DNA from: an uncultured Rhodocyclaceae bacterium
GTDB lineage: Bacteria > Pseudomonadota > Gammaproteobacteria > Burkholderiales > Rhodocyclaceae
Reading direction: 5' to 3'
Assembly: GCA_907163225.1 (NCBI GenBank)
Contig: OU015322.1
Coordinates: 2,786,060 to 2,850,059, forward strand
DNA: 64,000 nucleotides
The translations under genes and the position numbers were made by a program. Below the pieces are notes generated by a model. It was not told the origin of the DNA. It was given only the letters and a program-made list of their open reading frames with translations, and searched no databases. Positions 962 through 61,545 of the stretch are shown in pieces (the first letter of the stretch is position 1; each line of letters opens with the position of its first letter).

Positions 962-990
962 TACGGTCAACCGGAAAAATGAGCCAAAAA
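962..990 (+). repeat. Dispersed TVNRK-type repeat, copy in napA-napB spacer
   Basis: This copy has the core ACGGTCAACCGGAAAAA followed by GAGCCAAAAA. It sits between the napA stop and the napB ribosome binding site and is co-oriented with the operon. It matches copies near 19.8, 34.6, 41.8, 43.6, 44.9, 55.2, 56.3, 57.4 and 60.9 kb. Confidence 0.75.
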
Positions 991-1034
991 GCGAATGGGG
1001 CATCGTCTCCATTCGTTCATCGGAGGTAACAAAT

Positions 1035-1478
1035 ATGAGATTGATCACTGCACTGGCCCTAGCCGCCGGCATGCTCCTGGGGGGAGTTGCCGGCGTCAGC
1101 GCCCAGGAACTGCGAGTGAATGAGATTGGCATCGAGTCGATCGAGGGAAATTCCAAGGTTGATATGTTCCGGCCCGAGAAAGACCAGGCCACCATCCCGC
1201 GCAATTTCCAAAAGCAGCCGCCGCTGATTCCGCACAGCATCAAGGGTTACAACATCACCCAGAATTTCAACAAGTGCATGGACTGCCACTCGAAAGAGCG
1301 TGCCGAGGAAACTGGTGCAACGAAGGTGGCCAAGTCGCACTATCTGGACCGCGAAGACAAGAAGCAATCAAATATTTCTCCGCGCCGCTATTTCTGCATG
1401 CAGTGTCACGTGCCGCAGTTCGACGCCAAGCCGCTCGTCGCCAATACCTATAAGCCGGCAGCCAAGAAGGGGGAATGA
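1035..1478 (+). CDS. napB: Periplasmic nitrate reductase electron-transfer subunit NapB (dihaem cytochrome c)
   Basis: This 147-residue protein has an N-terminal signal peptide ending near VSAQE. It has two c-type haem motifs, CMDCH from about residue 81 and CMQCH from about residue 121, as expected for the dihaem NapB that passes electrons to NapA. GGAGG lies just upstream of the ATG at 1035. The napA stop is 100 bp upstream, and a repeat copy occupies part of that spacer. The 3' end overlaps napC, so the two are probably co-translated. Confidence 0.95.
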
Positions 1479-2137
1479 TGAGTCTCGATAAATTCACGCC
1501 CACATGGGTCAAGCGCATCGGGCTGGTCACCGTATTGGGCCTGTTCGTAGCCGGTATCGTCTTCTGGGGTGGCTTCAACTGGGCACTGGAATCGACCAAC
1601 AAGGAATCTTTCTGTATTTCCTGTCACGAGATGGAGGAAAACGTCTTCCGGGAGTATCAGAACACCGTTCACTACACGAACAGAACCGGGGTTCGCGCTA
1701 CTTGTCCGGATTGCCACGTGCCCAAGGAGTGGGGGCCAAAGATGATTCGCAAGATCCAGGCATCCAACGAAGTGCTGCACAAGGTTCTAGGCACCATCGA
1801 CACGCCAGAGAAATTCAACATGAAGCGCGGCCAACTCGCCCAGAACGAGTGGAAGCGTATGAAGGCGAACGACTCGCAGGAATGCCGCAATTGCCATCGC
1901 TACGACTACATGGATTACACCGAGCAGGGTGACCGTGCAGGCCGTATGCATCCGACTGCCTTCACGGAGGGTAAGACCTGTATCGATTGCCACAAAGGAA
2001 TCGCCCATCAACTACCTGCTATTGACCAGCACATTGGTAAGCAGAACGACGGCGCTGTCGCCATCTCTCATGGTGAAAAGCCTGTCGAGGCGGCGAAGGA
2101 TGGTGCAAATGAAGAGGCCAAGCCGGCCAGCAAGTAG
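1475..2137 (+). CDS. napC: NapC/NirT-family tetrahaem cytochrome c
   Basis: This 220-residue membrane-anchored quinol dehydrogenase feeds electrons from the quinol pool to NapB/NapA. One membrane helix spans about residues 14-33. Four CXXCH motifs are visible: CISCH (about 47), CPDCH (about 77), CRNCH (about 137) and CIDCH (about 169). The start overlaps the napB stop in ATGATGA, so 1475 and 1478 are both possible ATGs. A lysine- and glutamate-rich C-terminal tail follows the last haem. An intrinsic terminator follows the gene, making napC the end of the operon. Confidence 0.95.
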
Positions 2138-2160
2138 GTCAGCTTCGTCCGTATAAAGAC

Positions 2161-2191
2161 AAACCCGGCCGAGCGTCGGGTTTTCTTTTTT
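2161..2191 (+). terminator. Intrinsic terminator after napC
   Basis: A 7-bp stem AAACCCG/CGGGTTT with a 9-base loop is followed by a T-rich run (TTCTTTTTT). It lies about 25 bp after the napC stop. Confidence 0.8.
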
Positions 2192-2356
2192 GCTGGATGC
2201 TGTATCGAACGTATCAATATTACAAATATTCACCCAGTAGCCCGCAAATAGGGGGTCTTGGGCCAACACTTATTCAAATAGGTATGCTACTTTTACTCTG
2301 CTGCCGTTCCGACGGCCAGTTTTCTTAAACACTAATAGGTAACAGGAGGCACTTAG

Positions 2357-2656
2357 ATGAATAAATCCGAGCTGGTCGAAGTTGCTGCAAAAGAAGCTGG
2401 TATTACCAAGGCTGCTGCTGACAAGGCGTTGTCCGCCATTATCGGTGCGGTGGTAAAGACTGTAAGCAAAGGCGAGTCGGTTACTCTCGTTGGTTTCGGT
2501 ACGTTCAAATCTGCCCAGCGCGCAGCGCGCACCGGCAAGAACCCGAAGACTGGTGCAACGCTGAAGATTCCCGCGACTACGGTCCCGAAATTTACTGCTG
2601 GTACGGCTTTCAAGGCTTCGGTTGCCCCCAAGAAGACCGCTGCCAAGAAGAAGTAG
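2357..2656 (+). CDS. HU-family DNA-binding protein
   Basis: This 99-residue protein starts MNKSELVEVAAKEAGITK and contains the HU fold and beta-arm region (GFGTFKSAQRAARTGKNPKTG). HU bends DNA and organises the nucleoid. It differs from the roughly 90-residue E. coli HU by an extra basic C-terminal tail, PKKTAAKKK, which may add nonspecific DNA affinity. AGGAGG lies 7 bases before the ATG. The gene appears monocistronic, with a terminator directly after it. Confidence 0.93.
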   Translation: MNKSELVEVAAKEAGITKAAADKALSAIIGAVVKTVSKGESVTLVGFGTFKSAQRAARTGKNPKTGATLKIPATTVPKFTAGTAFKASVAPKKTAAKKK

Positions 2657-2672
2657 TCCAGTGTTGTCGAAT

Positions 2673-2706: not shown

Positions 2707-2714
2707 AAGTCGCA

Positions 2715-10744: not shown

Positions 10745-12225
10745 TGACGCCACGCGAAATTCTCGACCGCCTGGAAACCATGGGCGTTGTGCCGACGGGG
10801 GTTGCTGACGACAGCCGTCAGGTGTTGCCGGGTGATCTCTTTCTGGCCTATCCGGGCGATCTGGCCGATGGCCGTCGCTTTATCGGCAACGCGCTGGAGC
10901 GCGGCGCAATTGCTGTTCTTTGGCAGCCCGGTGAGAACTTCGATTTTGGCCAAGATTTCCCGTTGACCGCAAACCTGCCGGTCGATGCCTTGCGTCCGCT
11001 GGCCGGGCCTTTGGCGCACGCCGTTTATGGCCACCCGAGCGAAGGCTTGTCGCTGATTGCCATCACCGGCACCAATGGCAAGACGACGATCAGCCAGTGC
11101 CTCGCCACGGCCTATCCGAAACCCTGTGCCATCATCGGCACGCTTGGCGCCGGCTTCCCCGATGCCTTGGTCGAAACAGGTTTCACGACGCCCGAAGCAA
11201 CGACGCTGATGCGCTATCTGGCGAAGTTCCGCGCGGCCAAGGCGGCCGCCTGTGCGCTTGAAGCGAGTTCGATCGGCATCGAAGAGGGGCGGATGAATGG
11301 CGCCCGCGTCGATGTCGGGGTGTTCACCAATCTCTCTCGTGATCATCTCGACTATCACGGCACGATGGAAGCCTACGCCGCGGCCAAGGAAAAGCTCTTT
11401 GGCTGGCCGCGTCTGCGCACGGCGATCATCAATCTGGATGACGAATTCGGCCGCCGTTTGATGGGCTCAACAAGCGCGATGCGCGTTCTTGGCTATGCCA
11501 TCGGCGAGCAGCGGCGTGATTTCCCGGCGCTGATTCGTGCCGAAAACTTGGTCGATACGCCCTTTGGTCAACGCTTCAGCCTGATCCTGCCCAATGGCCG
11601 GGCCACCGTAGATACGGCCCTGGTCGGCCGCTACAACATTTCAAATCTGTTGGCTGTCGCCGGCGTGCTGCACGATGCAGGCATGCAGGCGGTTGATGTG
11701 GCGCGCCGCCTTTCCGAGCTGACACCGCCGCCAGGCCGCATGGAGCGGGTCGGTGGAAATGGCGAGCCGCTGGTGCTCATTGACTACGCCCACACCCCAG
11801 ATGCGCTCGAAAACGCCCTGGGCGCCCTGCGCGGCGTAGCCGAGGCGCGCGGTGGTCGCCTCAGCGTTGTGTTTGGCTGTGGCGGTGATCGCGATCCGGG
11901 CAAGCGCCCGCAAATGGGCGAAGTGGCCGAGCGTCTGGCAGATCGCGCCGTGGTCACCAGCGACAATCCGCGCAGTGAGTCGGCGCAGTCCATCATCGAC
12001 GCCATTGTCGGCGGCATGACGCGGGCCGAAGTCGAGGCGGATCGTGGTGCCGCCATTCATCGCGTCATTGTCGAGGCCGACGAACATGACGTCATTTTGC
12101 TCGCTGGCAAAGGCCATGAGCCCTATCAGGAAATCGCCGGTGTTCGTTATCCCTTTTCCGATGTCGAGCAAGCCCGCGCCGCGCTGGCCTTGCGCCGTCC
12201 CCAATCCAAGGAGGTAGCGGCATGA
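10744..12225 (+). CDS. murE: UDP-MurNAc-L-Ala-D-Glu:meso-DAP ligase MurE
   Basis: This 493-residue cytoplasmic ligase adds the third residue of the stem peptide. The ATP-binding motif is ITGTNGKTTISQ. The DNPR motif (TSDNPRSE) marks meso-diaminopimelate rather than lysine specificity. The ATG at 10744 overlaps the ftsI stop by one base; a GTG three bases earlier is an alternative. Residues about 66-76 (FDFGQDFPLTAN) are encoded by DNA resembling an inverted copy of the dispersed repeat. Confidence 0.95.
   Translation: MTPREILDRLETMGVVPTGVADDSRQVLPGDLFLAYPGDLADGRRFIGNALERGAIAVLWQPGENFDFGQDFPLTANLPVDALRPLAGPLAHAVYGHPSEGLSLIAITGTNGKTTISQCLATAYPKPCAIIGTLGAGFPDALVETGFTTPEATTLMRYLAKFRAAKAAACALEASSIGIEEGRMNGARVDVGVFTNLSRDHLDYHGTMEAYAAAKEKLFGWPRLRTAIINLDDEFGRRLMGSTSAMRVLGYAIGEQRRDFPALIRAENLVDTPFGQRFSLILPNGRATVDTALVGRYNISNLLAVAGVLHDAGMQAVDVARRLSELTPPPGRMERVGGNGEPLVLIDYAHTPDALENALGALRGVAEARGGRLSVVFGCGGDRDPGKRPQMGEVAERLADRAVVTSDNPRSESAQSIIDAIVGGMTRAEVEADRGAAIHRVIVEADEHDVILLAGKGHEPYQEIAGVRYPFSDVEQARAALALRRPQSKEVAA
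10941..10970 (-). repeat. Degenerate dispersed repeat inside murE
   Basis: The plus strand reads CGATTTTGGCC, then AAGATTTCC, then CGTTGACCGC. The order and spacing are the same as in the minus-oriented repeat copies (AATTTTGGCC, TTTTTCCC, GGTTGACCGT). It lies in the variable N-terminal domain of murE. The match is partial and could be chance. Confidence 0.4.
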
Positions 12226-13589
12226 AATGGCTGCTTTCACAAGTCGCCCAGTCGACGCAAGGTCGCTTGATCGGCCGCGACGTCGAGGTGACAGGTGTGA
12301 CGACCGACACCCGTGCCGTGGCTGACGGCCAACTATTCATCGCCCTCAGCGGCGAACGCTTCGATGCCCATGATTTTCTCGATCAGGCCGTCGCTGCAGG
12401 CGCAGTTGCCTTGCTGGTCTCGAATGAAAGCAAGGTGCCGGCCGGCATTTCAGCGGTCGTGGTCGATGATACGCGCCTTGCCCTCGGCTGCTTCGCTGCT
12501 GCCTGGCGTGCCCAGTTCGATTTGCCGGTGATCGCGGTGACCGGCTCCAATGGCAAGACGACGACGAAGGAAATGATCGCCTCGATTCTCAAGGCTGCCT
12601 TCGGTGCCGCCGTGCTGTCGACGCGTGGCAACCTGAACAACGACATCGGCTTGCCGCTGACCCTGCTTGGCCTCCGCGCCTCACACCGCGCAGCGGTGAT
12701 CGAGATGGGCATGAACCATCCCGGTGAAATTGCTTATCTGGCGCCACTGGGTGCGCCGACGGTGGCGCTGGTGACCAACGCCCAGCGCGCTCACCTCGAA
12801 GGCATGGGCGATCTCGACGAAGTGGCGCGTGAAAAAGGCAGCATCTTCGGCGGCCTGCAAGCGAATGGCGTCGCGGTGATCAATGCCGACGATGCCTACG
12901 TCGATGTTTGGCGCGGCATGGCTGGTCAGCACGCGGTGCGTACTTTTGGTATCGACCATGCCGCTGATGTGAGCGGCGCCGTCCACCAGCACGGGCTGGA
13001 AATCGCCATCGATCTGAAGGCTGCGGAAGGCGATGCTGCCGTCACGCTGCACATTCCCGGCCGCCACAACGCCCGTAACGCCGTTGCCGCTGCCGCCGCC
13101 TGTCTGGCCGCCGGGGTGCCGATGAGCGCCGTGGTCGAAGGGCTGAATGCCTTCGCCGGCGTCAAGGGCCGTCTGCAGCGCCGGGCCGGCAACAAGGGCG
13201 CCGAGATTCTCGACGATACCTACAACGCCAACCCGGATTCCGTGCGCGCCGGCATCGATGTGCTGGCTGCCACCATCGGCCGCAAGCTGTTCGTGCTCGG
13301 CGACATGGGCGAAATCGGCGAGGCCAGCGGCCAGTATCACGACGAAATCGGCGGCTACGCCAAGAGCCAGGGCATCGACCGCCTGTTTGCGCTGGGCGAC
13401 GCCGCGCAGCAGGCCGTGCGCAACTTCGGCGAAGGCGCCAAGCACTACTGCAACATCGAAAAGCTGATTGCTGCGGTCGACAAGGAAATGGGCCCGGAAA
13501 CCACTGTGCTGGTAAAGGGCTCGCGCTTTATGAAAATGGAACGCGTGGTGGATGCCCTCGCTGTGCCGGTTACCGAGGAGAAACACTGA
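12222..13589 (+). CDS. murF: UDP-MurNAc-tripeptide:D-Ala-D-Ala ligase MurF
   Basis: This 455-residue Mur ligase adds D-Ala-D-Ala to complete the UDP-MurNAc-pentapeptide. The ATP-binding loop is [14 protein letters not shown]. The central-domain motifs [10 protein letters not shown] and NADDAYVD and the C-terminal [10 protein letters not shown] motif are present. It overlaps murE by 4 bp (ATGA) and shares one base with mraY. Confidence 0.95.
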
Positions 13590-17334: not shown

Positions 17335-18381
17335 ATCATGGTCATGGCCGGCGGTACCGGCGGCCACATCTTCCCGGCGCTGGCCGTTGCCCATTCCCTG
17401 CGTGATGCCGGCTGGCGTGTCGTCTGGCTTGGCAATCCCGATGGTATGGAAGCCCGTCTGGTGCCCCAGCACGGCTTCGAGATGGTTAATCTGAAGTTCG
17501 CCGCCCTGCGCGGCAAGGGCATTTTGCGCAAGCTGCTGCTGCCGCTCAATCTGCTCAGGGGCTTCTGGCAGGCACAAAAGGCCATCCGGCAGATTCAGCC
17601 CAATGTCGTGCTCGGCATGGGCGGCTACATCACGTTCCCGGGCGGCATGATGGCTTCGCTGCTCGGCAAGCCGCTGGTGGTGCATGAGCAGAACTCCGTC
17701 GCCGGACTGGCCAATCGCGTGCTGGCCGGTGTCGCTGACCGCATCGTCACCGGCTTCCCGGATGTCCTGAACAAGGGTGTTTGGGCGGGTAACCCGGTGC
17801 GCCCGGAAATCGCCAAAATCGCTCCACCGGCCGAACGCTTTGCCGACCGCACCGGCGCCCTGCGGGTTTTGGTCATCGGTGGCAGCCTTGGCGCGGCGGC
17901 ATTGAACGAAATGGTGCCGAAAGGCATGGCCTTGCTCGGCGAAAGCGACCAGCCGCAAATCGTCCATCAGGCCGGCGAAAAGCATATCGAGGCGCTCAAG
18001 GCCAACTACGCCGCGGTCGGCGTGCAGGCCCATTGCGTCTCCTTCATCGAAGACATGGCCGGCGCCTACGAGTGGGCCGATCTGGTTATTTGCCGTTCTG
18101 GCGCGTTGACCGTGGCAGAGCTGGCAGCGACCGGCGTGGCGAGCATCCTGGTGCCCTTCCCGCATGCGGTGGATGACCACCAGACCGGGAATGCCAAGTT
18201 TTTAGTTAACGTCGGCGGCGCCTTCCTGTTGCCGCAAAACGAATTGACAGCGGAATCCATCGCCCTGATCCGGAACTATTCCCGCGGTCAACTGCTGGAA
18301 ATGGCCGAAAAAGCCCGCAGCCTGGCCAAGCCCGATGCCACCGCAGAAGTGGCCAATATTTGCGCGGAGAGTGCGAAATAA
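17326..18381 (+). CDS. murG: Lipid II synthase MurG
   Basis: This 351-residue GT28 enzyme transfers GlcNAc to lipid I on the inner membrane face. The glycine-rich [16 protein letters not shown], the [15 protein letters not shown] motif and the donor-binding region around [15 protein letters not shown] and [13 protein letters not shown] are present. It starts in an ATGA overlap with the micro-ORF, not directly with ftsW. The murC ATG follows the TAA without a gap. Confidence 0.95.
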
Positions 18382-19773: not shown

Positions 19774-19838
19774 ACGCCTACGGTCAACCCGAAAAAATGC
19801 CCAAAAATGAAAAGCTGTCTGGAGCAAAGCATGTCTGA
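19770..19838 (+). other. 22-codon leader-like ORF between murC and ddlB
   Basis: An ATG at 19770 overlaps the murC stop. The frame runs through the dispersed repeat and ends with TGA at 19836-19838, overlapping the ddlB start region. The peptide begins [13 protein letters not shown]. Translation is possible by coupling to murC. It may simply be the result of a repeat insertion in the spacer. Confidence 0.35.
19779..19808 (+). repeat. Dispersed TVNRK-type repeat, copy in murC-ddlB spacer
   Basis: This copy reads TACGGTCAACCCGAAAAAA, then TGCCCAAAAATGA. It is co-oriented with the operon, as is the copy in the nap operon. Confidence 0.7.
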
Positions 19839-26592: not shown

Positions 26593-29301
<2,709 letters not shown>

Positions 29302-31591: not shown

Positions 31592-32677
31592 ATGACTGAC
31601 ATCCGCCGCGACCTGGCCCGCAACACGCTGGCCATACTCTGCATCCTCGGGCTGATCGGCCTGTCGGTCTGGGTCTTGCTGCCCTTTCTGGCAGCGACGG
31701 TGTGGGCGGTGATGATTGTCGTGGCGACCTGGCCGCTGTTCCGGTCGCTCGAAGCGCGACTCGGTAACCAGCGGGCGCTGGCCGTGGCGATCATGTCGGT
31801 GGCCATGTTGCTTTTGCTTGTCCTGCCGCTATGGCTGGCTATCGACACCATTTTTGAGCATTCCGGGCAGTTGACCGCAGCAGGCAAATCGTTTGCTGCC
31901 AACGGCCTTCCGCCGCCACCGGCCTGGGTGAAAACGGTGCCGCTGGTTGGCGAGCGCATTGCCGTCGGCTGGGCACAGCTCGACGCTGCGGGGGCGACCG
32001 GTATTGTCGCCAAGGTGACGCCTTATGCAGCCGATACGGGTAAGTGGGTGCTCGCTCAGGTAGGTGGCATCGGCGGCATGCTGATTCAGTTTTTGCTCGT
32101 CGTCACCATTGCCGCCATCCTCTACGCCGGTGGCGAAGACGGAGCGCGGTTGGTGCGGCGTTTCGGCCGCCGACTGGCCGGCGAGCGGGGCGAGAATTCG
32201 ATCATTCTGGCTGGCCAGGCGATTCGTGGCGTGGCGCTGGGCGTCGGTGTCACTGCCATCGTGCAGACCGTGCTCGGTGGCATCGGGCTGGCCGTCGCCG
32301 GTGTGCCGTTTGCGTCGCTGCTGGCGGCCGTGATGCTGATGCTGTGCATCGCCCAGATCGGGCCGATGCTGATTTTGTTGCCGGCCGTCGGCTGGATGTA
32401 CTGGACCGGCGATACCGGCTGGGCGACGGCTTTGCTGGTGTGGAGCCTGATCGTCGGCAGCCTCGACAACTTCCTGCGCCCCATGCTCATCAAGCGCGGC
32501 GCCGATCTGCCGTTGCTGCTGATTTTCGCCGGCGTCATCGGCGGCATGCTGAGTTTTGGCCTCATCGGTATTTTCGTCGGGCCGGTCGTGCTTGCCGTTA
32601 CCTATACGCTGACCCTGGCTTGGATCGAGGATGCGCTGGGCAGGGACGAGCCGGCGCCCGAGCCGCCCGCTTCATAG
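31592..32677 (+). CDS. AI-2E family transporter (YdiK/PerM type)
   Basis: This 361-residue protein has about eight predicted membrane helices, with paired N-terminal helices (LAILCILGLIGLSVWVLLPF, then the ATVWAVMIVVATWPLF stretch). The C-terminal half has the family pattern IGPMLILLPAVGWMY and FLRPMLIKRGADLP. The family was named for autoinducer-2 export, but members also move other solutes, so the substrate is open. The 3' end overlaps the convergent methyltransferase by 6 bp. Confidence 0.85.
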   Translation: MTDIRRDLARNTLAILCILGLIGLSVWVLLPFLAATVWAVMIVVATWPLFRSLEARLGNQRALAVAIMSVAMLLLLVLPLWLAIDTIFEHSGQLTAAGKSFAANGLPPPPAWVKTVPLVGERIAVGWAQLDAAGATGIVAKVTPYAADTGKWVLAQVGGIGGMLIQFLLVVTIAAILYAGGEDGARLVRRFGRRLAGERGENSIILAGQAIRGVALGVGVTAIVQTVLGGIGLAVAGVPFASLLAAVMLMLCIAQIGPMLILLPAVGWMYWTGDTGWATALLVWSLIVGSLDNFLRPMLIKRGADLPLLLIFAGVIGGMLSFGLIGIFVGPVVLAVTYTLTLAWIEDALGRDEPAPEPPAS

Positions 32678-34398: not shown

Positions 34399-35078
34399 TG
34401 TACTTCGAATCCGTTACCTTTGACCTCGACGGCACCTTGCTCGACACCATCGCCGACCTGGCCGAAGCCTGTCGCCTGATGCTAGCCGAAGTCGGCGCCC
34501 GGCCGCGCACGCAGGCCGAGGTGCACAGCTTCGTCGGCAAGGGCATGGCCGTGCTTGTCGAGCGCTGCTTGACTCACGAGCATCCGCCGACGGATGAGCA
34601 ACTGCACGCCGCCATCGAATCCTTCAAACGCCACTATTCCACGGTCAACGGGAAATATTGCCAAATTTACGAAGGTGTTCTCGATGGGTTGGACGCCTGG
34701 AAAGCCAGCGGCCTCAAGATGGGCGTCGTCACCAACAAGCCCGGCATGTTCACCGAGCAACTGCTCGATCGCATGGGGCTGGCCGACTATTTCGACGTGG
34801 TTGTTTCCGGCGATACCACGCCGCACAAGAAGCCGCATCCCGAGCCCATCCTGCACGCCTGTCGCCTGTTCGCTGTGCAGCCTGAGCGCAATCTGCACAT
34901 CGGCGACTCGGAAAACGACATCCTTGCTGCCCGCGCCGCTGGTTCGCCGACCTACTGCGTCCCCTACGGCTACAACGAAGGCAAGCCGGTGGACAGCGCC
35001 GATTGCGATGCGCTAGTATCAAGCCTCCTTGTTGCCTACCAACAAGCCCTTAATTTCAAAGACCTCCAACACAAATGA
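34398..35078 (+). CDS. gph: Phosphoglycolate phosphatase (HAD family)
   Basis: This 226-residue HAD hydrolase starts with the nucleophile motif FDLDGTLLDTIADL. Motif II (VVTNKPG) and motif III/IV (KKPHPEP, HIGDSENDILAARAAG) follow. It removes phosphoglycolate formed from DNA repair or oxygenase activity. The cap region contains STVNGKYCQIY, encoded by a copy of the dispersed repeat. The stop overlaps the trp leader ATG (ATGA). Confidence 0.92.
   Translation: MYFESVTFDLDGTLLDTIADLAEACRLMLAEVGARPRTQAEVHSFVGKGMAVLVERCLTHEHPPTDEQLHAAIESFKRHYSTVNGKYCQIYEGVLDGLDAWKASGLKMGVVTNKPGMFTEQLLDRMGLADYFDVVVSGDTTPHKKPHPEPILHACRLFAVQPERNLHIGDSENDILAARAAGSPTYCVPYGYNEGKPVDSADCDALVSSLLVAYQQALNFKDLQHK
34639..34669 (+). 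repeat. Dispersed TVNRK-type repeat inside gph
   Basis: The DNA reads CCACGGTCAACGGGAAAT, then ATTGCCAAATTTAC. It is translated as S-T-V-N-G-K-Y-C-Q-I-Y in the cap domain. The frame is the same T-V-N-x-K frame used in the kinase and ArnT-like copies. Confidence 0.65.
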
Positions 35079-36700: not shown

Positions 36701-36743
36701 AAAGCCGCCTGAATTTTGGCGGCTTTTTCGTGTCGACCGCAGG
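36701..36743 (+). terminator. trpE terminator overlapping a degenerate dispersed repeat
   Basis: The stem AAAGCCGCC/GGCGGCTTT with loop TGAATTTT is followed by TTTTT. From the loop onward (36711-36743) the sequence GAATTTTGGC, GGCTTTTTCG, TGTCGACCGC follows the order of a minus-oriented repeat copy. Confidence 0.75.
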
Positions 36744-36756
36744 GAGAGTGGTAGTG

Positions 36757-40318: not shown

Positions 40319-42244
40319 ATGCCCGACGCCCGCCAGCCCATCCCGATCTCTCTGACCAAGCCGCGCCGCGTCCTTGGGGTGGCGGGGGTGATGATTCTGA
40401 TTCTGGTCACCGCGCTGTTTGCCTACCGGGTTTCCGAGAAGCAGGGTTTCAGCCAGATGCGTGACGAGGCCAGTCACCAGCTCGATATTCTGGCCGCAGC
40501 CATCGACAGCGAAGTGACGCGGCACGCCTCGATTCCCAGCGCCGTCGAGCTCAATCACGACATCCTGGCCCTGCTGCTCTCCCCGGCCGGCGAGCGCGAT
40601 GCGCTGCAGCCACCAGCCAACCGCTTCCTGCAAAATCTCAACGACCATCTCGGTGGGCCGGCCATTTTCGTGCTCGACACCAACGGGTGGGTGGTCGCTT
40701 CGAGCGACTGGATCTTTTCCGACAACCTGCTCGGCGCCGACCTGTCCACCATCCCGCTGTTCCGCGATGCCGTCGCCGGCACCCCGGGCCGGCACTACGC
40801 CGTCGACAACGTGCGCCAGGAGCCCGGCTATTTCTTCGCGCTGCCCATCCGCGACGAACAGCAGGATTGGAAGGTGATCGGCGTCGCCGTCGTCAAGTCC
40901 AGCCTGCACGAACTCGAGCGGCGCTGGCTCGGCCAGGAGGCGCCGGCCCTGATCGTCGACGCCAACGGCATCGTGCTCCTCGCCTCGCCGCCCGAATGGC
41001 GCTATGCCACGCTGCAGCCGCAAAACCCCGAAGTGCTGGCGCGCATCAGCCAGGAGCAGTTTGCCGGCCAGCCGCTCGGCGTTACCTCGCTCGACATCGC
41101 CATCGACGCGGCGCAGGAAGGCACCGTGGTCCGCCTGTCGCGCCAGCTCAAGCCCGACCCCGGCCCGCTGCAAGGCGCCAAGTCCTACCTCGCCCTGAGC
41201 CGCCACCTGCCGGGAACGGCCTGGCGCATCGTCGTCTTTTCCGACCTGCGCCCGGTTTTCGTCCAAGCCTCGACCCACGCTGCGCTGGCCGCTGCGGCCA
41301 TCGGCTGTTTCCTGCTCTGGCTGCTCTTCCTCAGCCAGCGCCGGCGCCTCGCCCGCGGTCGCGAGGAGGCGCGCGCCATGCTCGAACAGGCCAATCAGGA
41401 GCTCGAACGCAATGTCGCGGCACGTACTGCCGATCTCTCCGAAGCCGTCACCGGCCTGCAGCGCGAAGTCGCCGAACGCCAGCGCGCCGAACAAACCCTG
41501 CGCGCCGCCCAGGATGAACTGGTGCAGGCCGCCAAGCTCGCCGTGCTAGGCCAGATGGCGACCGGCATCACGCACGAACTCAGCCAGCCGCTTGGCGCCA
41601 TCCGCGCGCTGTCGGCCAATGCCGTCGAATTCATGCATCGTGGCGACCTCGCCACGGCCGAAAAGAATCTCGGCATCGTCGGCCAGCTGGCCGAGCAGGC
41701 CGGCGGCATCATCACGCCGCTTAAAACCTTCGCCCGCAAGTCGCCGGCCGTTTCGGTGGCGGTCGATGTGGCGCAGGCGGTCGATGCGGCGCTGTTCCTG
41801 TTCGACGCCCGGCTGAAAAAGATGAATGTCACGGTCAACCGGAATTTTGGCCCAAAATCGAAAATCGCCTGGTGCGACCAGAATCGTCTGCAACAGGTGC
41901 TGGTCAATCTGATCGGCAACGCCATCGATGCCATGGCTGATGAGCCGGTGCGCCGCCTCAGTTTCAGCGCCGAACGCGCCAGTTCCGGCCAGCTTGCCCT
42001 GGCCGTCAGCGACAGCGGCTTCGGCTTCACCGAAGAAGCGCTTGAGCACCTGTTCGAACCCTTCTTTACCACCAAGCAGCCGGGCGAAGGCCTCGGCCTT
42101 GGCCTGACCATCTCGCGCGACATCCTGCGCGACTTCGGCGGCGACCTGCTGGCCGGCCCGGCGCCCGGCGGCGGCGCCCGTTTCGTCATCCTGCTGCCGG
42201 CCGTGCCGCCGGCCACCTCCGTTCCTGAAAAGGGTCAGCCATGA
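40319..42244 (+). CDS. DctB/AauS-like sensor histidine kinase
   Basis: This 641-residue inner membrane kinase has helix 1 at about 18-38, a periplasmic dCACHE-like sensor, helix 2 at about 322-342, a coiled coil, and HisKA with His419 in GITHELSQPLGAIR. The ATPase domain has the N box NLIGNAIDAM, DSGFGF and GEGLGLGLTI. It probably senses acidic amino acids or dicarboxylates and phosphorylates the next gene's product, with which it overlaps by 4 bp. The linker residues VTVNRNFGPKSK are encoded by a dispersed repeat copy. The AauS-like role is inferred from the neighbouring gltIJKL. Confidence 0.88.
   Translation: MPDARQPIPISLTKPRRVLGVAGVMILILVTALFAYRVSEKQGFSQMRDEASHQLDILAAAIDSEVTRHASIPSAVELNHDILALLLSPAGERDALQPPANRFLQNLNDHLGGPAIFVLDTNGWVVASSDWIFSDNLLGADLSTIPLFRDAVAGTPGRHYAVDNVRQEPGYFFALPIRDEQQDWKVIGVAVVKSSLHELERRWLGQEAPALIVDANGIVLLASPPEWRYATLQPQNPEVLARISQEQFAGQPLGVTSLDIAIDAAQEGTVVRLSRQLKPDPGPLQGAKSYLALSRHLPGTAWRIVVFSDLRPVFVQASTHAALAAAAIGCFLLWLLFLSQRRRLARGREEARAMLEQANQELERNVAARTADLSEAVTGLQREVAERQRAEQTLRAAQDELVQAAKLAVLGQMATGITHELSQPLGAIRALSANAVEFMHRGDLATAEKNLGIVGQLAEQAGGIITPLKTFARKSPAVSVAVDVAQAVDAALFLFDARLKKMNVTVNRNFGPKSKIAWCDQNRLQQVLVNLIGNAIDAMADEPVRRLSFSAERASSGQLALAVSDSGFGFTEEALEHLFEPFFTTKQPGEGLGLGLTISRDILRDFGGDLLAGPAPGGGARFVILLPAVPPATSVPEKGQP
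41830..41863 (+). repeat. Dispersed TVNRK-type repeat inside the histidine kinase gene
   Basis: The DNA reads CACGGTCAACCGGAATTTT, then GGCCCAAAATCGAAA, translated T-V-N-R-N-F-G-P-K-S-K. It falls between the HisKA and ATPase domains, where sequence is variable. The reading frame is kept. Confidence 0.75.
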
Positions 42245-43561: not shown

Positions 43562-43619
43562 GCGGCGAGTTCGGCTGAAGCGCAGCGGTGAGTCGGGCCT
43601 AAATGCTGCGACAGGATTT

Positions 43620-43651
43620 CAATTTTGGCCGTTTTTCCCGGTTGACCGTGG
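43620..43651 (-). repeat. Dispersed TVNRK-type repeat, copy upstream of rhuM-like gene
   Basis: The plus strand reads CAATTTTGGCCGTTTTT, then CCCGGTTGACCGTGG, the minus orientation. It is one of the best copies. A second copy in the same orientation lies at 44908-44939, so the pair brackets the RhuM-family gene. The remaining spacer 43652-43840 shows no gene. Confidence 0.8.
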
Positions 43652-43840
43652 GATTCGGGATTCATGCTGCACGCGAAGCCGACGAGGGAGTCGCTCTGGT
43701 TTCCTTGGTGGTCGTTGGCTTCGGTTCGCTCGACACGGTGAATACCCTTCGATATGCTGACCGGATTTTGCGCGGGGGCCGGTTTTTTATTGGAGTCTGA
43801 CCCTTATTCCGCTGTTTATCGATCAAGTGTGGAGCCTGAA

Positions 43841-44833: not shown

Positions 44834-44907
44834 AAAAGCGAGATCGAATTCGTCAGGGCTGGTGATGAATTGAGAACCATAGGGGGTGACCCATGGCACT
44901 ACGATTT

Positions 44908-44939
44908 CAATTTTGGCACTTTTTTCCGGTTGACCGTGG
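44908..44939 (-). repeat. Dispersed TVNRK-type repeat, copy downstream of rhuM-like gene
   Basis: The plus strand reads CAATTTTGGCACTTTTTT, then CCGGTTGACCGTGG. The orientation is the same as the copy 1.3 kb upstream. Confidence 0.8.
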
Positions 44940-45016
44940 CATGCAGGATTGATCGAGCGTTGTCGAAAGACCGTTAAAAGACTATATTGAGTCCTCTGTC
45001 ACACAAGGGAAAACCC

Positions 45017-49967: not shown

Positions 49968-51065
<1,098 letters not shown>

Positions 51066-53544: not shown

Positions 53545-54969
<1,425 letters not shown>

Positions 54970-55201: not shown

Positions 55202-55225
55202 AAACCGCCGGTTTCGGCGGTTTTT
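55202..55225 (-). terminator. Terminator of the PAP2/glycosyltransferase operon
   Basis: The stem AAAACCGCCG/CGGCGGTTTT with a 4-base loop has T-rich sequence on its minus-strand exit. A dispersed repeat copy abuts its upstream side. Confidence 0.7.
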
Positions 55226-55226
55226 G

Positions 55227-55257
55227 ATTTTGGGGATTATTTCCGGTTGACCGTGGG
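55227..55257 (-). repeat. Dispersed TVNRK-type repeat beside the PAP2 gene end
   Basis: The plus strand reads GATTTTGGGGATTATTT, then CCGGTTGACCGTGG. It lies between the PAP2 stop (55263) and the terminator. Confidence 0.75.
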
Positions 55258-55262
55258 AATGC

Positions 55263-55952: not shown

Positions 55953-57396
55953 GCAGCAGGTAAACATCCATGTCGCGGCTGGTCGTCGCGTCGAGCGGTA
56001 CCTTCAGAGCCGCCAATTTTTCGATGCGGCCGAAGCGGGGTGCGAAATCGGCGCCAAGCGCCGTATCGGTGACCAGAAGCGCATCCTTGCCGACGTAGGG
56101 GCGCAGGTCGGTCGTCAGCTTGTAATGGTCGCTGGCGATGCCGGAAGGGTTCCAGCTGGCGGCGGCGGGCTTGAGGTCGCGCAGCTCGTAAAGCATGTGG
56201 GCGAGCAGGGTGCGGTTGTCGGCGACCAGGACGGCATCGGGGTGGGCTTGCAGGATTGGCCTCAGTTGCCGGCCCAGTTCATCCCAGCCCATGGCGCGCT
56301 TGAACGGGTTCAATTTTGCCTGTTTTTCCGGGTTGACCGTGGCAATCACCTGCGGCCAGTGATAGACCAGCCCGACGATCAGCAGATTGATCGCTAGCCC
56401 GGCAATCAGCAGCTTTTTCCTCTCGCGCTGCAGCAGCCAGGCCACGGCGGCGATGACGGCCGGCGCAAATGCGGGCGCCGCCCAGTTGGCGTTGGCGCTG
56501 CTCTTCATGGCCTGCGCCGAGACGACGATCCACAGCGGTAGAGCAAACCACAGCAGGAGTCGGGTGTTGTCGTCGCGCCAGCTTTCACGAACGCGCACGA
56601 GCAGCAGGAAGAAAACGCTGCCAAGCACTGGGCCGAAGGCGATCCACTGCGCCGCCCAGAATTCGCCGAGCGAGGCCAGCCCGCCGCCGGATTGACGGTT
56701 CAAGGTGATGTCGGCGGTGTGCTTGAGCGTCGGAAAATCGTGGGTGAAATTCCAGACGATGTTCGGCGCCAGGACGAGTAAAGCCAGTCCGACCGCCAGC
56801 CACGGTTTGGCCGACGCCAGGCGCGGCCGATGAAAGGCTAGCAGGAACAGGAAGGCCGCACCGAGCCAGGCCGCCATCGTGTATTTGGAGAGCAGGCCGA
56901 GGCCGCAGACCAGACCGAGCAACAGCCAGTCGGCCCAGCTATCGGAATCCAGCGCGCGCAGGAAGGCCCACAGCGCCAGCGCCCAGAACAGCGTGAGCAG
57001 CGCGTCGGTCGAAACAAACAGGCCGAGCCAGGAAAAAATGGGCAGGGTCAGCACGCAGGCCGCAGACCAGAAGGCAACGCGCTCGTCGTAGAGCCGGTGG
57101 GCAATCGCCCAACACGCCGCCGCAGCCAGCGGATAGCAGAGCATCGAAAGTGCCTTGACGCCGACCAGCCCGTCGCCGAACAGCGCGGTGGACAGCCAGA
57201 TCAGCGCCGCGACGCCGGGCGGCTTGGAGAAATAGCCCCAATCCAGATGCTGCGCCCAGGTCCAGTATTGCGCTTCATCGACGTAGAGCGTGATGCCCAG
57301 ATTGGGCAGGAGCCAGAAACGCCAGGCAAGCAGCGCGGCCGTCAGGCCAAACAGCAGTTTTGCGCTGTTTTTCCGGTTGACCGTGGAAAGGCTCAC
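55933..57396 (-). CDS. ArnT-like GT39/GT83 family glycosyltransferase
   Basis: This 487-residue polytopic transferase has the acidic first-loop motif VDEAQYWTWAQHLDWGYFSK with KPPGVAALI, and LSKYTM, typical of enzymes that move a sugar from a polyprenyl phosphate to lipid A or protein. Two dispersed repeat copies lie in its coding sequence. One supplies the N-terminus LSTVNRKNSAKL; the other encodes ATVNPEKQAKLNP in the periplasmic domain. It overlaps the GT2 gene by 4 bp. Confidence 0.85.
   Translation of the reverse strand: MSLSTVNRKNSAKLLFGLTAALLAWRFWLLPNLGITLYVDEAQYWTWAQHLDWGYFSKPPGVAALIWLSTALFGDGLVGVKALSMLCYPLAAAACWAIAHRLYDERVAFWSAACVLTLPIFSWLGLFVSTDALLTLFWALALWAFLRALDSDSWADWLLLGLVCGLGLLSKYTMAAWLGAAFLFLLAFHRPRLASAKPWLAVGLALLVLAPNIVWNFTHDFPTLKHTADITLNRQSGGGLASLGEFWAAQWIAFGPVLGSVFFLLLVRVRESWRDDNTRLLLWFALPLWIVVSAQAMKSSANANWAAPAFAPAVIAAVAWLLQRERKKLLIAGLAINLLIVGLVYHWPQVIATVNPEKQAKLNPFKRAMGWDELGRQLRPILQAHPDAVLVADNRTLLAHMLYELRDLKPAAASWNPSGIASDHYKLTTDLRPYVGKDALLVTDTALGADFAPRFGRIEKLAALKVPLDATTSRDMDVYLLHDFKGY
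56311..56342 (-). repeat. Dispersed TVNRK-type repeat inside the ArnT-like gene
   Basis: The plus strand reads CAATTTTGCCTGTTTTT, then CCGGGTTGACCGTGG, translated in the T-V-N-P-E-K frame on the minus strand. It sits after the last membrane helix. Confidence 0.75.
57356..57386 (-). repeat. Dispersed TVNRK-type repeat at the start of the ArnT-like gene
   Basis: The plus strand reads AGTTTTGCGCTGTTTTT, then CCGGTTGACCGTGG. It encodes residues 4-13 (S-T-V-N-R-K-N-S-A-K), so the element forms the cytoplasmic N-terminus. Confidence 0.75.
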
Positions 57397-58575: not shown

Positions 58576-59148
58576 ATGCTGCTGATGATCGACAATTACG
58601 ACAGCTTCACCTACAACATCGTCCAGTACTTCGGCGAGCTCGGTCAGGACGTCAAGGTGTATCGCAACGATGCCATCACCGTCGACGAAATCGCCCGGCT
58701 CAAGCCCGAATATCTGGTGATTTCCCCCGGTCCCTGCGCCCCGGCCCAGGCCGGCATCTCGCTGGCTGCCATCAAGGCATTCGCCGGCAAGATCCCGCTA
58801 CTCGGCGTCTGCCTCGGTCACCAGTCGATCGGTGAGGCCTTTGGTGGCAAGATCGTGCACGCCAAGCAGTTGATGCACGGCAAGGTTTCTGAGGTCAACC
58901 ACAAAAATGAGGGTGTTTTCAAAGGTCTGCCCAATCCGTTGACCTGCACCCGCTACCACTCGCTGGCCATCGAACGCGAATCGCTGCCCGATTGCCTCGG
59001 CATCACCGCCTGGACCGACGACGGCGAAATCATGGGCGTCCGCCACAAGACGCTTGCCGTCGAAGGCGTGCAGTTCCACCCCGAATCCATCCTGACCGAA
59101 CGCGGTCACGACCTGCTCAAGAACTTTCTGGACGAATTCAAGAAATGA
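58576..59148 (+). CDS. trpG: Anthranilate synthase glutamine amidotransferase
   Basis: This 190-residue class I amidotransferase supplies ammonia to TrpE. The nucleophile Cys79 is in [15 protein letters not shown], and the His-Glu of the triad is in [10 protein letters not shown]. It has its own upstream region; no leader peptide like the one before trpE is seen. It overlaps trpD by 4 bp. Confidence 0.95.
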
Positions 59149-60167
59149 CCCCGCAAGCCGCCCTCCAGCGTGTCATCGAACACCGCGAAATTTTCCATGA
59201 CGAAATGGTCTCCCTGATGCGCCAGATCATGAGCGGCGAAGTCACGCCGGTCATGATCGCCGCCATCATCACCGGACTGCGCGTCAAGAAAGAAACCATC
59301 GGCGAAATCGCCGCTGCGGCCAGCGTCATGCGCGAATTGTCGACCAAGGTCACGGTGCCCTACGACAACCGCTTCGTTGACATCGTCGGCACCGGTGGCG
59401 ATTCGGCCCACAGCTTCAATATTTCCACCACCTCCATCTTCGTCGCCGCCGCCGCTGGCGCCAAAGTCGCCAAGCACGGCGGGCGCAGCGTTTCGTCCAG
59501 TTCCGGCAGCGCCGACGTCCTCGAAGCCCTCGGCGCCAACATCATGCTGTCGCCTGAGCAGGTCGCTGCCTGCATCGAAGCCTGCGGCATCGGCTTCATG
59601 TTCGCCCCCAACCACCACAGCGCCATGAAGCACGTCGCCCCGGTGCGCCGCGAAATGGGCGTGCGCACGCTGTTCAACATCCTCGGGCCGCTGACCAATC
59701 CGGCATGCGCGCCGAATACGCTGATGGGCGTCTTCCACCCCGACCTCGTCGGCATCCAGGTCCGCGTCATGCAGCGCCTTGGCGCCGAGCGCGTCCTGGT
59801 CGTGCATGGCCGCGACAACCTCGACGAAATCTCTCTCGGCGCCGCCACCCTGGTCGGCGAACTGAAAAATGGCGAAGTCACTGAATATGAAGTGCACCCC
59901 GAAGACTTCGGCCTGCAAATGATGTCGCTGCGCAACCTTCGCGTCGATGGCGCAGAGGAGTCCAAAGCCGTCATGCTCGGCGCCCTCGACAACAAGCCCG
60001 GCGCCGCCCGCGAAATCGTCTGCCTCAACGCCGGCGCCGCGCTCTACGTCGCCAATGTCGCCGACAGCATCGGTGACGGCATCGCCAAAGCGCGTGAAGC
60101 CATCGCCAGCGGGGCCGCCCGCGCCAAGCTCGAGCAGTTCGTCGCCTGCACCCAAAAATTGGCGTAA
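59145..60167 (+). CDS. trpD: Anthranilate phosphoribosyltransferase
   Basis: This 340-residue enzyme joins anthranilate to PRPP. Motifs are [17 protein letters not shown] (PRPP), [21 protein letters not shown] and [11 protein letters not shown]. The ATG at 59145 overlaps the trpG stop (ATGA). The next gene is not trpC but a toxin-antitoxin pair. Confidence 0.95.
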
Positions 60168-60222
60168 TGCCTAGAATGATGTAGAGTTCTCATTGTACTT
60201 ATTTGTGTACAAGGAGTTTGCC

Positions 60223-60483
60223 ATGGATACGATGACCTACAGTTATACCCGCCAGAACTTTGCCAATGTGATGGACCGCGTCAATGACGATCGTGCGCCG
60301 TTGCTGATTACCCGTCAGCAAGGAAAGCCGGTGGTCATGATGTCGCTGGACGATTTCAATGCCCTTGAGGAAACGGCCTATCTGTTGCGCAGCCCAGCCA
60401 ATGCTCAGCGTTTGATCGACGCCATCGCACAGGTTCGCTCCGGCGGCGGCAGTATAAAAACGCTGGCGCTTGATGCCGATTAA
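60223..60483 (+). CDS. YefM/Axe-family antitoxin inside the trp operon
   Basis: This 86-residue protein has a Phd/YefM pattern (SYTRQNFANVMDRVNDDRAP, then LLITRQQGKPVVMMSLDDFN, ALEETAYLLRSPANAQRL). It neutralises the YoeB-type toxin after it. AAGGAG precedes the ATG at 60223. It starts 55 bp after trpD. Confidence 0.92.
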   Translation: MDTMTYSYTRQNFANVMDRVNDDRAPLLITRQQGKPVVMMSLDDFNALEETAYLLRSPANAQRLIDAIAQVRSGGGSIKTLALDAD

Positions 60484-60733
60484 ATTTGCTGATCTTGCCT
60501 GGGCGGATTACGTGTTCTGGCAACAGGCTGACAAGGCAACGACCAAACGAATTCATTCCCTGATCAAGGATATTCAGCGATCTCCCTTTGAAGGTATCGG
60601 CAAGCCCGAGCCTTTGCGACATAATTTTTCAGGCTTCTGGTCTCGCCGCATTGATGAGGAACATCGCCTCATCTACACCATCGAAGATGGCTGCATCGTC
60701 GTTGTCCAGTGCCGCTACCACTACCAATCATGA
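60473..60733 (+). CDS. YoeB/Txe-family toxin inside the trp operon
   Basis: This 86-residue ribosome-dependent RNase family member has the pattern [21 protein letters not shown], then [30 protein letters not shown] and the end CRYHYQS, typical of YoeB. The C-terminal His-Tyr residues needed for activity are present. The ATG at 60473 overlaps the antitoxin by 11 bp. Its stop overlaps the trpC start as ATGA, so trpC translation may depend on toxin translation. Confidence 0.93.
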
Positions 60734-61545
60734 GCGACATCCTCAACAAAATCATCGCCACCAAGCACGAAGAAATCGCCGCTGCGCTGGCCGTCAAACC
60801 GCTCGCCGCCGTCGAAGCCGAAGCCGCCGCGCAACCAGCGCCACGCGACTTCGTCGGGGCCATCCGCCACAAGCTCTCCCACGGTCAACCGGGAATAATC
60901 GCCGAAATCAAAAAGGCCAGCCCTTCCAAAGGCGTCATCCGTCCGGACTTCCACCCCGCCGACATCGCCCGCAGCTACGAGCAGCACGGCGCCGCCTGTC
61001 TGTCGGTGCTCACTGATCGCCAATACTTCCAGGGCTGTCCCGAATACCTGCAAGCCGCCCGCGCTGCCTGCGCCCTGCCCGTGCTGCGCAAGGACTTCAT
61101 GGTCGACGCCTATCAAGTTGCCGAAGCCCGCGCCATGGGCGCCGACGCCATCCTGCTCATCGCCGCTGCCCTTAGCCTGCCCGAAATGCAGGCCCTCGAA
61201 GCCCAAGCCCACGGCTACGGCATGGCCGTCCTCGTCGAAGTGCACAACGGCGAAGAACTCGACGCCGCCCTCCAGCTCAAAACCCCGCTGCTTGGCATCA
61301 ACAACCGCAACCTGCGCACCTTCGACGTCACGCTCCAAACCACCCTCGGCCTCCTGTCGCGCATCCCCGCCGACAAAATAGTCGTCACCGAAAGCGGCAT
61401 CCTGGCCCCGAAAGACGTCGCGCTAATGCGGCAGAACAAGGTCAGCGCCTTCCTCGTTGGCGAAGCCTTCATGCGCGCGCAGGAACCAGGGGCGGAGCTG
61501 GCAAGGCTATTCGCCGGAAATGCGACGGTCGGCGCTCGACCTTAA
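60730..61545 (+). CDS. trpC: Indole-3-glycerol phosphate synthase
   Basis: This 271-residue TIM-barrel enzyme shows [47 protein letters not shown] and VTESGI. The ATG at 60730 overlaps the toxin stop; a longer in-frame start inside the toxin gene is less likely. The stretch [13 protein letters not shown] is encoded by a repeat-like sequence. Confidence 0.95.
60879..60912 (+). repeat. Dispersed repeat-like sequence inside trpC
   Basis: The DNA reads CCACGGTCAACCGGGAAT, then AATCGCCGAAATCAAA. The first 14 bases match the core exactly. The second half encodes the conserved IAEIKK, so part of the match may come from the protein. The reading frame differs from the T-V-N copies. Confidence 0.55.

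What the first reader, a model, noticed from the sequence alone, without database searches (positions are those of the whole stretch)
962..60912. Dispersed element of about 30 bp present between genes and inside reading frames
A sequence with core CGGTCAACCGGAAAAA, and a few bases later CCAAAATTGAA, appears at 962, 19779, 34639, 41830, 43620(-), 44908(-), 55227(-), 56311(-), 57356(-) and 60879. Weaker copies occur at 10941 and 36711. The core CGGT-CA-ACCG is nearly palindromic. Copies occur in spacers of operons (nap, murC-ddlB), next to terminators and inside genes. In genes it is mostly read as T-V-N-R-K-x-x-A-K. Ten copies in 64 kb is far above chance for the core. It is not a standard REP, uptake or Chi sequence that I recognise.
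Basis: seen in the sequence. Interest (0 to 1): 0.82.

Follow-up and report, generated by a model that had tools for sequence, protein, structure and literature searches.

The report
Probable self-DNA uptake tags in Azonexus
A bacterium and many of its sister species carry on the order of a thousand copies of a short DNA tag that looks and behaves like the "take up your own kind's DNA" tags reported so far from only two other bacterial families, and different sister species use different versions of it.

Summary
The repeat is real. CGGTCAACCGG occurs 344 times in the 3.46-Mb genome, against 23 for the reversed control. A profile trained on 464 kb finds 161 sites where 0.9 are expected, about 1,200 per genome by extrapolation. 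It is a ~37-bp asymmetric motif: TSCYR-CGGTCRAC, then A/T tracts about one helical turn apart.

It does not behave like a mobile element. It changes in place, lies in genes in all six frames, is enriched between genes, most at convergent gene ends, lacks strand bias, and is spaced more evenly than random placing. It is confined to one genus (Azonexus/Dechloromonas by name of hits): 0-4 hits in each of 285 other genomes of the family. It is patchy there and has dialects: a three-species clade carries CGGTCGGC instead, often at the same sites. Two long inserts in comEC of motif-rich sisters hold none, against 15.5 expected.

Best reading: a DNA uptake sequence used in natural transformation, in a third family, built like the Pasteurellaceae USS. 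Uptake is untested, the receptor unidentified, and neither comEC state nor ComP-family presence tracks the motif.

The parts
958..997 (+). motif copy, intergenic
   Evidence: profile 46.5 bits; between gene and 1041-1478
10936..10975 (-). motif copy inside a gene, antisense
   Evidence: 38.8 bits; G068 51.6, G122 50.6; ATGCTACGGTC at the same place in G069 and G029
13468..13507 (+). weak copy in a gene, possibly chance
   Evidence: 23.9 bits; 25.6 in G068; nearly the same peptide in motif-less G018
   Evidence: 40.9 bits; TTGCTACGGTC at the same place in G069/G029; absent in G018
18079..18118 (-). weak match, probably chance
   Evidence: 29.3 bits but scores below 0 in all 5 relatives compared
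18279..18318 (+). weak copy in a gene
   Evidence: 18.5 bits; 14.8 in G068 and G122
19775..19814 (+). motif copy forming the murC-ddlB spacer
   Evidence: 48.1 bits; A core in 10 of 30 genomes of the genus, B core in 3, no spacer in 17
27019..27058 (-). weak match, probably chance
   Evidence: 14.8 bits, below 0 in all 5 relatives compared
   Evidence: 31.2 bits; 37.6 in G068, 40.4 in G122; ATGCTACGGTC in G069/G029
31844..31883 (-). weak copy
   Evidence: 21.0 bits; 19.9 in G068, 14.2 in G122
34636..34675 (+). motif copy in a gene
   Evidence: 42.9 bits; 41.4 in G068, 39.9 in G122; ATGCTACGGTC in G029, none in G069
36706..36745 (-). motif copy, intergenic
   Evidence: 33.4 bits; degenerate in G068/G122; ATGCTACGGTC in G069
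41826..41865 (+). motif copy in a gene
   Evidence: 46.0 bits; conserved in G068/G122, ATGCTACGGTC in G069/G029
43615..43654 (-). motif copy, intergenic
   Evidence: 51.2 bits; one flank not found in the 5 relatives
44903..44942 (-). motif copy, intergenic
   Evidence: 51.5 bits; flanks not found together in the 5 relatives
50326..50365 (-). weak match
   Evidence: 17.3 bits; 13.2 in G068 only
54171..54210 (+). weak match, probably chance
   Evidence: 19.9 bits, below 0 in the 4 relatives aligned
55220..55259 (-). motif copy abutting a terminator-like hairpin at 55201-55224
   Evidence: 48.3 bits, 48.3 in G068, 46.1 in G122; hairpin
56306..56345 (-). motif copy in a gene
   Evidence: 45.0 bits, 46.6 in G068, 45.0 in G122; not in G069/G029
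57350..57389 (-). motif copy near the start of a gene
   Evidence: 38.9 bits, 37.2 in G068; ATGCTACGGTC in G069/G029
58886..58925 (+). weak match, probably chance
   Evidence: 29.9 bits, core AGGTC, below 0 in the 4 relatives aligned
60876..60915 (+). motif copy in a gene
   Evidence: 41.8 bits; 41.8 in G068, 43.2 in G122; absent in G029 and G018

Best explanation
The motif is a DNA uptake sequence. Shown: an estimated thousand or more copies per genome of a ~37-bp asymmetric motif (CGGTC core plus two or three A/T tracts about one helical turn apart) in part of one genus, with dialects structured by phylogeny, one dialect replacing another in place, enrichment where it should harm genes least, and absence from two long inserts. 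Inferred: a surface receptor, probably a minor pilin of the type IV pilus, binds the motif so that competent cells pull in DNA of their own lineage; the A/T tracts help the helix bend or open for passage; recombination of tagged fragments spreads and maintains the tags (molecular drive); a change in receptor specificity rewrites the tag genome-wide, giving dialects; loss of specificity lets tags decay.
For: Copy number and profile. Layout follows the published USS plan of core plus two 3' AT-rich segments spaced by roughly helical turns (passages of PMC1626085; introduction of PMC12616744), and CGGT is shared with both USS types. Genus-restricted: 0-4 hits in each of 285 other genomes of the family, 35 of 285 with any. 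Dialects: A pattern at >=450 hits in 11 of 76 genomes of the genus and 90-449 in 23 (the latter include forms C and D); B pattern 120-185 hits in 3 of 76 and 0-3 in the other 73; B is one clade at 100/100. In place: ATGCTACGGTC at 7 of the 12 strong window sites with an aligned B orthologue, at 0 of these sites in G000, G068, G122 or G018. 62% genic, 37% intergenic against 12.3% non-coding, P 1.7e-15; published: 65% within ORFs in H. influenzae, 35% in N. gonorrhoeae (PMC1939737 passage). Density 2.5/kb in convergent spacers, 0.85 tandem, 0.64 divergent, 0.24 in genes. No strand bias (77/81; 74/84 against GC skew); spacing CV 0.76 against 0.93 random, P 0.0024. comEC inserts of G122 and G002: 0 sites against 8.1 and 7.4 expected. 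comEC in one open frame in G000, and a minor-pilin operon with a ComP_DUS-family pilin, PilW and PilY1.
Against: No uptake or transformation was measured, and searches of the held library found none described for these genera (listings only). No pilin or competence gene tested tracks the motif: PF16732 is in 70 of 76 genomes of the genus, motif-less ones included; the FimU-like pilin does not correlate; comEC is split or truncated in 6 of 28 motif-rich and 6 of 23 motif-poor genomes, P 0.75. ComEA, DprA, PilQ and PilT were not looked for. The A group is not one clade (3 changes) and motif-poor genomes lie beside or within it, e.g. G025 next to G000. At 5 of 12 strong sites the B sisters lack ATGCTACGGTC, and at 4 of those (958, 55220, 56306, 60876) they lack a B-type site altogether. 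Close inverted pairs are rare (1 among 158 sites). About 1 copy per 2.6-2.9 kb is sparser than in H. influenzae (1471 cores in 1.8 Mb). Evenness by 20-kb bin alone is not significant (P 0.08). No integrase was found among the five proteins of the G122 insert that were scanned, and the expected counts for the inserts use densities from core-gene stretches, for G002 those of another species.
Confidence: 0.8

Rival explanations
1. A binding site of an abundant chromosome-organising or DNA-repair protein (nucleoid protein, SMC loader, Chi- or KOPS-like guide) that has co-evolved with its site.
For: Spread over the whole chromosome, even spacing and A/T tracts as in bent DNA; dialect switching would also follow from a changed intracellular protein.
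Against: No strand or replichore bias (74/84, GC skew as proxy), as Chi or KOPS would need; no regional clustering, 2-10 sites in each of 20 sampled 20-kb stretches. A nucleoid protein should be conserved in the genus, yet 29 of 76 genomes have <=10 A-pattern hits (one of them, G029, has dialect B); the three checked (G018, G065, G016) show no over-represented substitute. Two long inserts lack it.
Confidence: 0.12
2. A REP/REPIN-like or MITE-like repeat spread by a transposase.
For: Dispersed; the 10-bp core is nearly palindromic; at murC-ddlB a ~60-bp spacer containing the motif is present in 13 and missing in 17 of 30 genomes.
Against: 62% of copies are in called genes, in all six frames. 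At the genic sites printed, relatives show bases with point differences rather than an empty site. Sequence outside the ~37 bp is unconserved. Replacement of one dialect by another at old sites is not what transposition does. A partner transposase was not searched for.
Confidence: 0.03
3. A transcription-factor operator or terminator signal for a very large regulon.
For: One window copy abuts a terminator-like hairpin at 55201-55224; motifs are enriched in convergent spacers.
Against: Among spacers, least dense where promoters lie (divergent, 0.64/kb); 62% in coding sequence; one close inverted pair among 158 sites; on the forward strand an A-run, not a T-run, follows the core.
Confidence: 0.04

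Closest known systems
Pasteurellaceae uptake signal sequence (USS; Hin and Apl types)
   Same: Core containing CGGT, AT-rich segments on the 3' side about a helical turn apart, hundreds to thousands of copies, no strand bias, genic and intergenic copies, subclade-specific types (passages of PMC1626085, and PMC1939737; introduction of PMC12616744).
   Different: Core is TSCYR-CGGTCRAC, not ANNNGCGGT; the first A/T tract begins 12 bp after the C of CGGT; a third weak A-rich end; ~60% GC betaproteobacterium; several dialects in one genus; uptake untested.
Neisseriaceae DNA uptake sequence (DUS) and its dialects
   Same: Betaproteobacterial; lineage-specific dialects with a conserved inner core; foreign islands recognisable by atypical DUS distribution (passages of PMC3630211, and PMC7371117).
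   Different: Unrelated sequence; DUS is one short block without flanking motifs; DUS counts seen are higher (1543-3770 in the passages); the DUS receptor ComP is known, whereas here only members of its Pfam family were found, also in motif-less species.
REP/REPIN and MITE repeats (recalled)
   Same: Short, dispersed, many copies.
   Different: Not palindromic over its length, mostly in genes, changes in place.
Chi / KOPS guide motifs (recalled)
   Same: Frequent short chromosomal words.
   Different: No strand bias, much longer, genus-restricted with dialects.

Membership tests
Uptake sequences in general (USS/DUS) | Hundreds to thousands of copies, far above chance | tested here: met
   344 against 23 reversed control; 161 against 0.9 in 464 kb
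Uptake sequences in general (USS/DUS) | No strand or replichore bias, even spread, excess in non-coding DNA | tested here: met
   spacing CV significant (P 0.0024), counts per 20 kb not (P 0.08)
Uptake sequences in general (USS/DUS) | Clade-specific dialects congruent with phylogeny | tested here: met
   tree of one 4.2-kb locus from 30 of 76 genomes; A, B and low groups need 4 changes against 9.9 shuffled, 6 rows in no group not counted; B one clade, A not
Uptake sequences in general (USS/DUS) | Sparse in recently acquired DNA | tested here: met
   0 against 15.5 expected in two comEC inserts of motif-rich genomes; only two such inserts examined
Uptake sequences in general (USS/DUS) | Preferential uptake of motif-bearing DNA by competent cells | not testable with these tools
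   needs an uptake assay
Uptake sequences in general (USS/DUS) | Surface receptor that binds the motif | tested here: inconclusive
   ComP_DUS-family pilin in 70 of 76 genomes, not tracking the motif; FimU-like pilin likewise
Uptake sequences in general (USS/DUS) | Competence machinery present | tested here: inconclusive
   comEC match at E<=1e-10 in 74 of 76, over cut-off in 68 of 76, one open frame in G000, split in motif-rich G122 and G002; other com genes not tested
Pasteurellaceae USS | Core ANNNGCGGT | tested here: not met
   core is TSCYR-CGGTCRAC; works like, but is not, a Pasteurellaceae USS
Pasteurellaceae USS | Two AT-rich segments on the 3' side about one helical turn apart | tested here: met
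   W tracts at +12 to +16 and +22 to +27
Neisseriaceae DUS | Inner core CTG, no flanking AT segments | tested here: not met
REP/REPIN or MITE | Palindromic or inverted-repeat unit, intergenic, transposed as a block | tested here: not met
   asymmetric, 62% genic, point differences at orthologous genic sites
REP/REPIN or MITE | Partner transposase | not tested
Chi / KOPS | Strand bias relative to replication | tested here: not met
   74 against 84, GC skew as proxy

The most novel reading that the evidence does not exclude
A third, independently evolved self-DNA uptake system, outside Neisseriaceae and Pasteurellaceae, in the environmental genus Azonexus/Dechloromonas. It has converged on the Pasteurellaceae design (CGGT core plus helically phased A/T tracts), and several dialects and their loss can be seen in flux within one genus, with sites rewritten in place when the dialect changed.
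Probability: 0.72. Interest if true: 0.92.

Novelty: new variant of a known kind. Interest (0 to 1): 0.86.

Why it matters
Uptake sequences are stated to be known from two families only (PMC12616744, introduction; PMC1626085, passage). A third case with the same architecture would show that the design can evolve more than once and suggest that the CGGT core and phased A/T tracts answer a shared physical need. In one genus, 34 of 76 genomes have 90 or more A-pattern hits and 3 more have dialect B, beside close relatives that lack both, so gain, switch and loss of uptake specificity can be dated and the receptor sought by comparison. It bears on whether such tags arise by biased uptake alone. 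The tag would also mark DNA shared by transformation, and tag-free stretches would flag foreign DNA.

Tried and rejected
Receptor by presence/absence: the FimU-like minor pilin and ComP_DUS family PF16732 do not track the motif. Of 101 prepilin-type matches in eight chosen genomes I fetched most but not all; a script found 55 prepilin-like reading frames in the fetched stretches of nine genomes and no clear correlate. NCBIfam named none of five G000 pilins above a cut-off except by the general prepilin domain TIGR02532. Loss of comEC as the cause of motif loss: rejected (6 of 28 motif-rich and 6 of 23 motif-poor genomes split or truncated, P 0.75; classed by hand among genomes at least 90% complete; genomes with 31-89 hits and G123 left out; some truncations may be contig ends). 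Hidden dialects in motif-less genomes: over-represented 8-mers in G018 (228 kb), G065 (166 kb) and G016 (80 kb) were no stronger than background words, and fixed-offset words before paired A/T tracts gave nothing in smaller samples; other low-count genomes were not examined this way. Literature: the core as text gave three papers, unrelated by title; uptake sequence with Rhodocyclaceae, Dechloromonas or Rhodocyclales gave none; a looser search gave 40 papers, 12 listed, none of these pairing Dechloromonas with uptake sequences; natural transformation with Dechloromonas gave 5 and natural competence with Azonexus 1, none about transformation of these genera by title. The library holds open-licence papers only.


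Full report
OBSERVATION. CGGTCAACCGGAAAAA has 16 matches in the window at up to three mismatches, against 0.78 expected and at most 3 in 100 shuffles. The window is C1:2786060-2850059 of a 3,463,890-base single-contig genome, in which the exact 11-mer occurs 164 + 180 times, against 11 + 12 for the reversed pattern.

WHAT THE MOTIF IS. I read 464 kb of the genome, the window plus twenty roughly evenly placed 20-kb stretches. Aligned on the 47 exact cores, information runs from about -5 to +31 and then fades. An iterated profile settles on 161 sites at >=12 bits, with 0.9 expected from an order-5 Markov background; the scores are sharply two-humped (158 positions >=16 bits, 183 >=4 bits with 4.6 expected). 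That is one site per 2.9 kb, about 1,200 per genome by extrapolation. Consensus: T-S-C-Y-R-CGGTC-R-AC-s-s-G-R, an A/T tract at +12 to +16, S-S-C-C, an A/T tract at +22 to +27, and a weak A-rich end at +29 to +31. Among windows with both tracts, the exact CGGTCAAC is 525 times as frequent as among all windows, one-mismatch forms 31 times, two-mismatch forms 1.3 times.

WHERE IT LIES. A simple gene caller of my own gave 411 genes and 87.7% coding. Of 158 sites >=16 bits, 98 are genic, 58 intergenic and 2 on edges; leaving out the edges, 58 of 156 against 12.3% non-coding gives binomial P 1.7e-15. All six frames are used; 49 of 98 use the T-V-N-R-K frame. Density per kb: convergent spacers 2.5 (15 sites), tandem 0.85 (32), divergent 0.64 (7), genic 0.24. 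Strands 77 and 81; relative to GC skew 74 and 84. Spacing CV is 0.76 against 0.93 for random placing (P 0.0024); evenness of counts per 20 kb is suggestive only (variance/mean 0.59, P 0.08). One pair of neighbouring sites lies within 120 bp.

WHO HAS IT. With the relaxed pattern CGGTCRAC-N4-W4-N6-W5, 11 of 76 genomes of the genus have >=450 hits, 23 have 90-449, 13 have 11-89 and 29 have <=10; the reversed control gives 0-4. In 285 genomes of other genera of the family the count is 0-4, with 35 of 285 above zero; in 48 genomes of other families of the order the 11-mer has 0-9 copies, in the range of its control. One viral contig has a strict hit.

DIALECTS. At the murC-ddlB junction, 10 of 30 genomes carry the A motif, 3 (G069, G029, G123) carry the same motif with CGGTCGGCC, and 17 have no such spacer; there the genes appear to overlap by ATGA (starts judged by eye). 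CGGTCGGC-N4-W4-N6-W5 has 185, 120 and 170 hits in those three genomes and 0-3 in the other 73; the three have 14, 5 and 12 hits of the A pattern. ATGCTACGGTC, the B extension, is at 19.6 and 10.5 per 100 kb in the two B genomes read and 0-0.2 in the seven others read. Profiles for G071 and G064 give two further, less sharply defined forms, C and D. On a tree of a 4.2-kb locus from 30 genomes the B group is one clade (100/100), and A, B and motif-poor groups together need 4 changes against 9.9 for shuffled labels, 6 rows being in no group. The A group is not one clade and two motif-poor genomes (G025, G035) sit among A genomes, which means losses or transfer. One locus in bacteria that may recombine does not settle fine branching.

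CHANGE IN PLACE. I compared the window with syntenic stretches of two A sisters, two B sisters and motif-less G018. Of 14 strong window sites, 10 score >=30 bits at the orthologous place in G068 and 9 in G122. Twelve strong sites have an aligned segment in at least one B sister; 7 of these carry ATGCTACGGTC there (10936, 19775, 29861, 34636, 36706, 41826, 57350), one carries TTGCTACGGTC (14942), and 958, 55220, 56306 and 60876 carry no B-type site. ATGCTACGGTC is at none of these sites in G000, G068, G122 or G018. None of the 8 strong sites aligned in G018 has the motif there, and its 68-kb stretch has 1 profile hit >=12 bits against 22 in the 64-kb window. At 6 of 6 genic sites the G018 peptide differs; one of these is a weak site with a nearly identical peptide, and divergence alone would give some difference, so this is supporting evidence only. 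At 14942 the motif persists in three A genomes while the peptide varies (VNQ, VDR, VNG).

INSERTED DNA. comEC is split by 43.3 kb in G122 and 33.7 kb in G002, both motif-rich. These inserts hold no motif against 8.1 and 7.4 expected (densities from other stretches of G122 and of G068; joint P 1.9e-7), while motifs lie within 1 kb of the split gene's pieces. The G002 insert has a large serine recombinase at one end; in the G122 insert no integrase was seen among the five proteins scanned. The inserts of G043 and G018 also lack motifs, but those genomes are motif-poor; that of motif-poor G065 holds two. In G000 the poorest sampled stretch, L019, has 2 sites, both in its first 5.7 kb; the motif-free rest holds a type I restriction subunit and a TraG/TraD-like protein.

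INTERPRETATION. These are the traits described for DNA uptake sequences: even spacing, no strand bias, non-coding excess with many genic copies, accumulation from existing sequence, clade-specific types, and for the Pasteurellaceae a core followed by two AT-rich segments about a helical turn apart (passages of PMC1939737, PMC1626085, PMC3630211 and PMC7371117; introduction of PMC12616744). That introduction states that only Neisseriaceae and Pasteurellaceae are known to discriminate in this way. I therefore read the motif as an uptake sequence of a third family. Uptake itself, the receptor and most of the competence machinery are inferred, not shown. Candidates exist in G000: an operon with a ComP_DUS-family pilin, a GspH/FimU-like pilin, PilW and PilY1, and comEC in one open frame. 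Neither the presence of that pilin family nor the state of comEC separates motif-rich from motif-poor genomes, so the specificity factor remains open. Motif-poor species with intact comEC do not contradict the reading, since most competent species take up DNA without tags (recalled), but they give it no support either.

MEMBERSHIP. It works like a USS/DUS. It is not a Pasteurellaceae USS (core ANNNGCGGT not met) nor a Neisseriaceae DUS (no CTG core, has AT flanks). The evidence is against REP/MITE, Chi and KOPS.

Noticed in passing
G122 C1:2720194-2765330 (L409-L411); G002 C33:109264-144789 (L412-L414); G065 C1:3064248-3130284; G043 C1:2218349-2252635; G018 C8:1064725-1114638: comEC is split by 20-64 kb of lower-GC DNA in five genomes, in G018 into three pieces, with breaks near profile positions 161-166 (G002, G043, G018) and ~590 (G065, G122): comEC looks like a repeated insertion target. 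The G002 insert starts with a large serine recombinase.
   Followed up: partly
G065 C1:3088364 and 3091251 (L416): Two of the three pattern hits of motif-poor G065 lie close together inside its comEC insert, as if the insert came from a motif-bearing relative.
   Followed up: no
window 19774-19830 (murC-ddlB): The junction looks like a 4-base overlap in genomes without the spacer but holds a spacer built around the motif in A and B genomes; here the motif came or went with an indel.
   Followed up: partly
window 55201-55259: A motif in reverse orientation supplies part of the T-rich tail of a terminator-like hairpin.
   Followed up: no
window and L009-L028 (464 kb of G000): Two other word families are over-represented in G000: CCTCTCCAAC (9-mers 18-19 copies against 0.8-0.9) and CCCTCTGAGAC (9-mers 8-9 against 0.2-0.3).
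   Followed up: no
L019 (G000 C1:1730001-1750000): Motif-poor stretch with an EcoEI-type restriction subunit and a TraG/TraD-like protein, possibly an integrated mobile element.
   Followed up: partly
L164 (IMGVR_UViG_3300029891_000082): A single IMG/VR contig carries one strict copy of the motif; phage or host flank not determined.
   Followed up: no
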